Part shown: positions 4,424 through 5,350 of the stretch, one piece after another | Layout: each line of letters opens with the position of its first letter | Numbering within the stretch: position 1 is the first letter of the stretch | Virus record (IMG/VR): IMGVR_UViG_3300030118_004623 | Location: 1 to 49,630 of that record | Length of the DNA stretch: 49,630 bases | Direction: 5' to 3' (one strand) | From: a virus | Notes under the pieces: model-generated | Databases searched by the model: none | What the model was told of the DNA's origin: nothing | The model's input: the letters and a program-made list of their open reading frames with translations, nothing else | Made by a program: the position numbers and the translations under genes

Positions 4424-5350
4424 ATGACAGCATACTACAACGAGATTGAACCGTACGCAGCGCAATGGCTCCGCAACCTTGAAGGGGCGGGGCACATTGC
4501 CGCTGGCACCATCGACCACCGCGACATTCGCGACGTGACACCGGAGGATATCGGACATGGACAAGCACACTTTTTCGCAGGCATCGGAGCATGGTCTCAC
4601 GCACTGCGACTCGCCGGAGTGCCCGACAACGCCAGCATCTGGACCGGCTCGGCCCCCTGCCAGCCATTCAGCACCGCCGGAAAACGCAAAGGGACAGACG
4701 ACGAGCGCCACCTGTGGCCAACATGGTACGAACTCATCAAGAAGTGTCGCCCTGCAATCATCTTTGGAGAGCAGGTTGCGAGTCCTGACGGACGGCGCTG
4801 GTTCGACACTGTACGCTCTCAAATGGAAGCACTGGGATATGCCGTCGGGGCCTCCGATATGTGCGCTGCGGGCGTCGGTGCGCCGCACATCAGGCAACGC
4901 CTCTTTTGGGTGGCCGTCGCCAGTCAAGAACGACTCGAAGGGCTCCGCGTACAGCTACAGCAGGGGCGACAAGACGAAGCCCAGCTTGAAGCTGCTCGGG
5001 GCAGCTCGGCTGGTAGCGTGGGGCACGCCGACAGCACGGGAGTTCGCAGGGAATCCAGATGTAGCGTTCAAACGCAAGGAGAAGTACCCGTGCGGACAGT
5101 CGGTGACTCTGTTGTCTCACCAAGTCAGGCTTGTGCAGGACACTGGGCCGACCACGAGTGGGTGCCCTGCCGAAACCCACGAGACTCCAACCAAACCGAT
5201 TTCCGGCCAGTTGAACCCGGCACACTCCCGCTGGCTCATGGGATTGCCAACCGAGTGGGACGATTGCGCGCCTACGGGAACGCCATCGTCCCTCAAGTAG
5301 CCGCAGCATTTATCAAAGCAACACTGCAAACACTAGACATGGAGGTGTGA
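4424..5350 (+). CDS. dcm: C5-cytosine DNA methyltransferase
   Basis: 308 residues. It would transfer a methyl group from S-adenosylmethionine to C5 of cytosine in DNA. Visible motifs in order: cofactor loop FFAGIGAW (about residues 49-56), catalytic [10 protein letters not shown] (about 78-87, Cys nucleophile), FGEQVAS in place of the usual ENV (about 114-120), [15 protein letters not shown] (about 150-164) and C-terminal [13 protein letters not shown] (about 286-298). The segment between the last two is short and low in pattern, leaving little room for a normal target-recognition domain. A second protein-like frame (4557-5300) runs inside it. It probably protects phage DNA from host restriction. 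Solitary: no endonuclease gene is visible nearby. Confidence 0.9.
4557..5300 (+). CDS. Overlapping frame nested in the methyltransferase gene
   Basis: 247 codons open in a second frame inside 4424-5350, ending 50 bases before the host gene does. The product is Ser/Thr/Pro-rich at the N-terminus, then carries stretches I recognise from separately annotated phage proteins that overlap dcm genes: [10 protein letters not shown].. (about 90), [28 protein letters not shown] (about 125-150), [19 protein letters not shown] and [20 protein letters not shown] near the C-terminus. Both frames keep family-like motifs at the same bases, which points to dual coding. The start (ATG at 4557) lacks a strong ribosome site (GACATGG region), so expression may depend on coupling. 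Function unknown, presumably linked to the methyltransferase. Confidence 0.6.

What the first reader, a model, noticed from the sequence alone, without database searches (positions are those of the whole stretch)
4557..5300. A second conserved-looking protein is encoded inside the cytosine methyltransferase gene
Seen in sequence: a 247-codon frame stays open inside 4424-5350 for 744 bases, while the main frame keeps C5-methyltransferase motifs up to [10 protein letters not shown] at its end. Established: separately annotated phage proteins with stretches like [15 protein letters not shown] and [13 protein letters not shown] are familiar to me as partners of such dcm genes. Inference: the two are dual-coded. 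That would explain why the methyltransferase has a short, pattern-poor target-recognition segment in exactly the overlapped part. The nested product's role is unknown.
Basis: partly seen in the sequence, partly recalled or inferred. Interest (0 to 1): 0.75.

Follow-up and report, generated by a model that had tools for sequence, protein, structure and literature searches.

The report
Two-frame split phage cytosine methyltransferase
One stretch of this phage's DNA is read in two frames to make the two halves of a single DNA-methylating enzyme, so the protein hidden inside the methyltransferase gene is most likely its missing DNA-recognition subunit; this arrangement turned out to be the rule in a large family of phage enzymes and resembles one enzyme pair already known, M.EcoHK31I.

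Summary
In detail: a 247-codon frame (4557-5300, frame +1) lies inside the C5-cytosine methyltransferase gene (4424-5350). It is a real gene. In 155 distinct homologs, +1 stops occur at 0.048 per codon before the nested start and 0.00025 after it. A strong Shine-Dalgarno site (GGAGG, 4543-4547) precedes its ATG, and an ATG near the same place is kept in 149 of 155 homologs. The nested product is not a second protein of unknown role, and the methyltransferase does not have a degenerate recognition segment. The functional blocks of one enzyme alternate between frames: motifs I-VIII and X in alpha, target-recognition domain (TRD) plus motif IX in beta. Substitutions show this directly: in the TRD-coding stretch beta is under purifying selection (odds 0.18) and alpha is not (2.05); around motif X it is the reverse. 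Profile comparison aligns beta with the in-frame TRD and motif IX of single-chain mycobacteriophage relatives (E 7e-10). The kind is known: M.EcoHK31I is a two-polypeptide C5 enzyme with motif IX in the small subunit. What appears underappreciated is the breadth (phages, prophages, plasmids, several bacterial phyla) and that the TRD sits in the nested frame. Expression and heterodimer formation are inferred, not shown.

The parts
4424..5350 (+). alpha ORF (308 aa): catalytic polypeptide of a C5-cytosine methyltransferase, motifs I-VIII and X
   Evidence: phrog_363 1.4e-75; PF00145 2.3e-19, profile positions 59-172 of 324 only; HhaI-like sequence and fold match
4543..4547 (+). Shine-Dalgarno GGAGG for beta, 9 nt before its ATG
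   Evidence: read from sequence; of 155 homologs 149 have a +1 ATG at alpha codons 25-47 and 121 have one with an SD; SD enriched over other +1 ATGs, Fisher p 2e-36
4557..5300 (+). beta ORF (247 aa), +1 frame: TRD and motif IX polypeptide
   Evidence: phrog_1008 4.3e-27; open in relatives; beta-frame purifying selection
4568..4618 (+). alpha motif I region [17 protein letters not shown]
   Evidence: invariant columns H49, F51, G53, G55
4646..4681 (+). alpha motif [14 protein letters not shown] with the catalytic Cys
   Evidence: P78-C79-Q80 invariant in 65 homologs
4746..4886 (+). beta helix-hairpin segment (beta residues 64-110), overlapping alpha motifs VI-VIII; constrained in both frames
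   Evidence: pLDDT about 73-87 in the beta model; lowest density of substitutions among the larger regions, odds alpha 0.40 and beta 0.81
4766..4777 (+). alpha motif VI GEQV
   Evidence: G115-E116-Q117-V118 invariant
4877..4909 (+). alpha motif [15 protein letters not shown]
   Evidence: P154, R157, R159 invariant
4908..5201 (+). beta TRD with WPTP-type modules; alpha frame here is a passenger
   Evidence: 173 substitutions in 9 close pairs of relatives: 107/38/28 at alpha codon positions 1/2/3, i.e. fastest at beta's wobble position; alpha model pLDDT 35-57 from about residue 200 to 288
5205..5267 (+). beta motif [23 protein letters not shown]
   Evidence: aligns with in-frame LNPAFPEWMMGWPTGW of single-chain relatives; beta odds 0.10
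5273..5314 (+). alpha motif [15 protein letters not shown]; beta stops inside it
   Evidence: Y284-G285-N286 invariant; alpha odds 0.21, beta 1.18; modelled helix 290-303, mean pLDDT 91-94 in the last two blocks

Best explanation
The locus encodes one C5-cytosine DNA methyltransferase as two polypeptides from two overlapping frames. Alpha (frame 0) carries SAM binding and catalysis (motifs I-VIII) and motif X. Beta (frame +1), started at its own ribosome site at alpha codon 45, carries the target-recognition domain and motif IX, which lie in the DNA between the alpha blocks VIII and X, where a single-chain enzyme has them. Alpha and beta associate into a working enzyme whose DNA specificity is set by beta. 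The enzyme probably protects phage DNA from host restriction. Shown here: both frames are kept open and are under frame-specific selection, beta is homologous to an in-frame TRD plus motif IX, and an independent start signal is conserved. Inferred: expression, association, specificity set by beta, and the anti-restriction role.
For: (1) Stops in +1: 0.048 per codon before beta's start, 0.00025 after, in 155 loci; region-wise null with a calibrated control. (2) Reciprocal linkage: 80 of 80 beta loci from prokaryote genomes hold an overlapping alpha. (3) Frame-specific selection alternates along the gene: odds of nonsynonymous change (alpha / beta) 0.05 / 3.12 in the alpha-only 5' part, 2.05 / 0.18 in the TRD, 1.39 / 0.10 in motif IX, 0.21 / 1.18 in motif X; the same pattern for motifs IX and X in a separate selection of pairs. 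(4) Single-chain relatives (Mycobacterium phage WillSterrel type) hold PTP..D TRD modules, motif IX and motif X in one frame with the +1 frame closed. Profile alignments: window beta family vs their C-terminal half E 6.7e-10; distant beta vs the same 2.3e-13; the two beta families 2.5e-26. (5) SD and start conserved. (6) Alpha is modelled confidently only in its catalytic part and motif X helix, with HhaI, HaeIII and DNMT as fold matches. (7) Precedent: M.EcoHK31I, two polypeptides, motifs I-VIII and X in the large one and motif IX in the small one (PMC3404938).
Against: No expression or activity data. The beta model is poor (mean pLDDT 58.8) with no significant PDB fold match, and beta profiles find no PDB sequence. 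In-silico chains joining alpha and beta blocks did not raise the Pfam score. A paper that reviews M.EcoHK31I places its predicted TRD in the large subunit, which differs from what selection shows here. 14 of 96 distinct viral pairs lack an SD before the chosen beta start.
Confidence: 0.9

Rival explanations
1. One polypeptide is made by programmed ribosomal frameshifting: 0 to +1 after motif VIII and back before motif X.
For: The block order I-VIII / TRD-IX / X in the DNA is that of a single-chain enzyme.
Against: Beta's frame is stop-free far upstream of the TRD, from its start to codon 115 (0 seen, 73 expected), which frameshifting would not need; a start with SD is conserved there; two opposite shifts would be needed; M.EcoHK31I is two polypeptides. 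Shift sites were not searched for.
Confidence: 0.04
2. Beta is an accessory protein unrelated in function to the methyltransferase, overprinted on a complete alpha enzyme.
For: Beta has no Pfam or NCBIfam match and no detectable relative among solved structures.
Against: Profile homology to the in-frame TRD and motif IX of single-chain enzymes; alpha lacks motif IX and shows no selection in the TRD-coding part; no beta locus of the genome set lacks alpha.
Confidence: 0.05
3. Chance or compositional open frame with no product.
For: In the window alone p is only 0.024.
Against: 213 expected +1 stops against 2 seen in the overlapped parts of 65 loci; beta-frame purifying selection.
Confidence: 0.01

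Closest known systems
M.EcoHK31I (YGGCCR), a naturally split C5 methyltransferase with alpha and beta polypeptides
   Same: Large polypeptide with motifs I-VIII and X, small one with motif IX (PMC3404938). From my own knowledge, not checked here: alpha is about 309 aa and beta is encoded inside alpha in another frame.
   Different: The cited paper puts its predicted TRD in the large subunit; here selection and homology put the TRD in the small one. Specificity here is unknown.
PHROG 363 (alpha) and PHROG 1008 (beta), phage 'DNA methyltransferase' families
   Same: Window proteins match at 1.4e-75 and 4.3e-27.
   Different: They are listed as separate families; nothing in the output says that one overlaps the other.
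M.AquI, two-polypeptide C5 methyltransferase
   Same: Enzyme split into two polypeptides, the smaller holding motif IX.
   Different: Split is linear: motifs IX and X both in the small subunit, with part of the variable region in each.
Single-chain C5 methyltransferases (M.HhaI, M.HaeIII; phage WillSterrel type)
   Same: Same catalytic motifs and block order; alpha's N domain aligns with HhaI.
   Different: All motifs in one frame and chain; in WillSterrel the +1 frame is closed.
[quoted passage not shown]
   Same: Hidden reading frame in a phage methylase.
   Different: A homing insertion unrelated to recognition; not this arrangement.

Membership tests
C5-cytosine DNA methyltransferase (PF00145) | Catalytic motif IV PCQ and motifs I, VI, VIII | tested here: met
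   PF00145 2.3e-19; P78-C79-Q80, G115-E116, R157 and R159 invariant in 65 homologs
C5-cytosine DNA methyltransferase (PF00145) | TRD and motif IX present | tested here: met
   Not in alpha but in beta, by profile alignment to in-frame relatives and beta-frame selection
C5-cytosine DNA methyltransferase (PF00145) | Methylates cytosine C5 in DNA | not testable with these tools
   needs an assay
M.EcoHK31I-type split methyltransferase | Motifs I-VIII and X in one polypeptide, motif IX in another | tested here: met
   definition from PMC3404938
M.EcoHK31I-type split methyltransferase | Second polypeptide encoded in another frame within the first | tested here: met
   that this also holds for M.EcoHK31I is from own knowledge
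M.EcoHK31I-type split methyltransferase | Predicted TRD in the large subunit, as the literature states for M.EcoHK31I | tested here: not met
   Here the TRD-coding stretch is read in the beta frame and beta aligns with in-frame TRDs. The published placement is a prediction, so this may be a correction and not a difference.
M.EcoHK31I-type split methyltransferase | Sequence kinship with M.EcoHK31I alpha and beta | not testable with these tools
   its sequence was not at hand; Lee et al. 1995 is not held
M.EcoHK31I-type split methyltransferase | Both polypeptides needed for activity | not testable with these tools
   needs an assay

The most novel reading that the evidence does not exclude
A whole lineage of phage C5 methyltransferases is built on one old frame swap: TRD and motif IX moved to the +1 frame, were never returned except perhaps in one mycobacteriophage branch, and selection for specificity acts on the nested frame while the outer frame is a passenger there. 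The many 'orphan' phage methyltransferases of this family would then be only half annotated, and the TRD assignment of M.EcoHK31I would need revising. One change between dual and single forms suffices on the tree, and a single origin is not rejected (p-AU 0.38).
Probability: 0.5. Interest if true: 0.65.

Novelty: new member of a known kind. Interest (0 to 1): 0.5.

Why it matters
Phage methyltransferases of this family are usually annotated as one gene, so their recognition part goes unlisted and predictions of specificity from alpha alone look at a passenger sequence. The family gives hundreds of natural examples of a long same-strand overlap in which one can see, block by block, which frame selection reads, and a tractable case of how a single-chain enzyme and a two-frame split enzyme interconvert.

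Tried and rejected
Pfam scans of beta gave only chance matches. PDB sequence searches with beta, its profile and the distant beta profile found nothing usable. The beta structure model was low confidence and its fold search meaningless. Virtual chains joining alpha I-VIII, beta TRD-IX and alpha X did not gain Pfam score, so that test neither supports nor refutes. I first thought the conserved beta helix-hairpin showed an independent domain; in a single-chain relative a similar string also appears as an out-of-frame reading of motifs VI-VIII, so conservation alone there is weak evidence. The M.EcoHK31I primary papers are not held. Literature searches for earlier reports of this overlap in phages found none in the held library, which lacks most subscription journals.

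Full report
The window is a virus record from IMG/VR. The reported open frame is real: 4557-5300 on the + strand, 247 codons plus stop, frame +1 relative to the methyltransferase ORF 4424-5350. The outer protein, alpha, is a phage C5 methyltransferase (phrog_363, 1.4e-75); its Pfam match covers only profile positions 59-172 of 324. The inner protein, beta, matches phrog_1008, also called DNA methyltransferase, at 4.3e-27, and nothing in Pfam or NCBIfam.

Is it more than chance? For the window alone, only moderately: p = 0.024 when alpha's protein is fixed and codons are redrawn. With homologs it is beyond doubt. In 116 viral loci holding alpha the +1 frame is open over a median 89% of alpha, the +2 frame 18%. 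Starting from beta instead, in the prokaryote genome collection (mostly Pseudomonadota, also Planctomycetota, Verrucomicrobia, Leptospiraceae, Bacteroidetes and others by record title), 80 of 80 loci hold an overlapping alpha. In 155 distinct loci, +1 stops occur at 0.0479 per codon in alpha codons 1-45 and at 0.00025 afterwards. Region by region over 65 diverse loci: 0 against 73 expected from beta's start to codon 115, 0 against 48 in motifs VI-VIII, 0 against 62 in the TRD, 2 against 30 around motif IX; the control stretch, codons 2-24, has 63 against 56.

Beta has its own start. In the window GGAGG lies 9 nt before its ATG. 149 of 155 homologs have a +1 ATG at alpha codons 25-47, and 121 have one preceded by an SD-like site; such sites are enriched over other +1 ATGs (Fisher p 2e-36).

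Which frame does selection read? In 9 independent close pairs aligned without gaps, substitutions in the alpha-only 5' part fall 7/4/65 on alpha codon positions 1/2/3, as in an ordinary gene. In the TRD-coding part they fall 107/38/28: the fastest position is alpha's first, which is beta's third. Odds of nonsynonymous change relative to random mutation, alpha and beta: 0.05 and 3.12 (5' part), 0.12 and 1.84 (IV-VI), 0.40 and 0.81 (VI-VIII), 2.05 and 0.18 (TRD), 1.39 and 0.10 (motif IX, only 13 substitutions), 0.21 and 1.18 (motif X and tail). A different selection of pairs (17 chosen, 15 usable) shows the same reversal at motif IX and return at motif X. So the gene is a mosaic: alpha is read for I-VIII and X, beta for TRD and IX, with motifs VI-VIII constrained in both.

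What is beta? Distant relatives gave the answer. In phage C72C1, Paenibacillus phage Arcticfreeze (where both ORFs are annotated, each as cytosine methyltransferase), Mycobacterium phage ShroomBoi, a Paracoccus phage, and Escherichia phages Alma, K1ind2 (beta annotated as 'Mte8-like') and N15, a motif-IX string of the form NP....(L/M)MG.P..W lies in the +1 frame (the Paracoccus copy is a variant of it). In Mycobacterium phage WillSterrel and its kin the same blocks, PTP..D modules, motif IX and motif X, are in frame 0 and the +1 frame is closed. Profile comparison aligns the window's beta family with that in-frame C-terminal half (E 6.7e-10), the distant beta family with it (2.3e-13), and the two beta families with each other (2.5e-26). 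Alpha, conversely, is modelled with confidence only in its catalytic part and in the motif X helix; the stretch between is unstructured in the model, and its fold matches are HhaI, HaeIII and DNMT proteins. The model of beta alone is poor, as might be expected of a domain that needs its partner, but that is inference.

Evolution. On a tree of the N domain one change between dual-frame and single-frame forms suffices once three odd loci (two single-indel variants and one misread motif) are set aside; a single dual-frame clade is not rejected (p-AU 0.383), and rooting on HhaI is unsure because of its long branch.

How it works, most likely: alpha and beta are made from one message, assemble, and form one methyltransferase in which beta reads the DNA. 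The precedent is M.EcoHK31I, two polypeptides with motifs I-VIII and X in the large and IX in the small (PMC3404938); split fragments of M.SssI and M.HhaI also reassemble. The same source places the predicted TRD of M.EcoHK31I in the large subunit; for the present family the substitution pattern and profile homology place it in the small one. Whether this corrects the M.EcoHK31I assignment or marks a difference could not be tested, since its sequence and primary papers were not available.

Verdict: observation confirmed; interpretation partly supported. It is a new member of a known kind, with a breadth and a frame-by-frame anatomy that a specialist would find worth knowing.

Noticed in passing
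L187 2344-3402; L278 1501-2274; L342 1501-2418: Variants in which motifs I-VIII, TRD and motif IX share one frame while motif X lies in another: one of the two frame changes is undone, by a natural indel or an assembly error.
   Followed up: partly
L178 (Arsenophonus endosymbiont), L386, L161: Alpha appears broken or cut short by a frameshift or stop in these loci; likely decaying prophage copies or sequencing errors.
   Followed up: no
plasmid records (H241-H252): Beta relatives also occur on 12 plasmid records, all typed non-mobilizable and annotated there only as a DNA cytosine methyltransferase; plausibly phage-plasmids.
   Followed up: no
window 3975-4421: ORF just upstream of alpha has a weak HicB-like match (phrog_497, 9e-5); its stop lies 2 nt before alpha's ATG, which has no clear SD, suggesting coupled translation.
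   Followed up: no
window 6595-7512: Tyrosine-recombinase integrase (phrog_1, 1.7e-27), so the window is probably a temperate phage.
   Followed up: no
Mycobacterium phages of the WillSterrel type (L199, L345-L374): Single-chain sister group of a dual-frame group in the same host genus: a possible natural case of merging or splitting of frames.
   Followed up: partly
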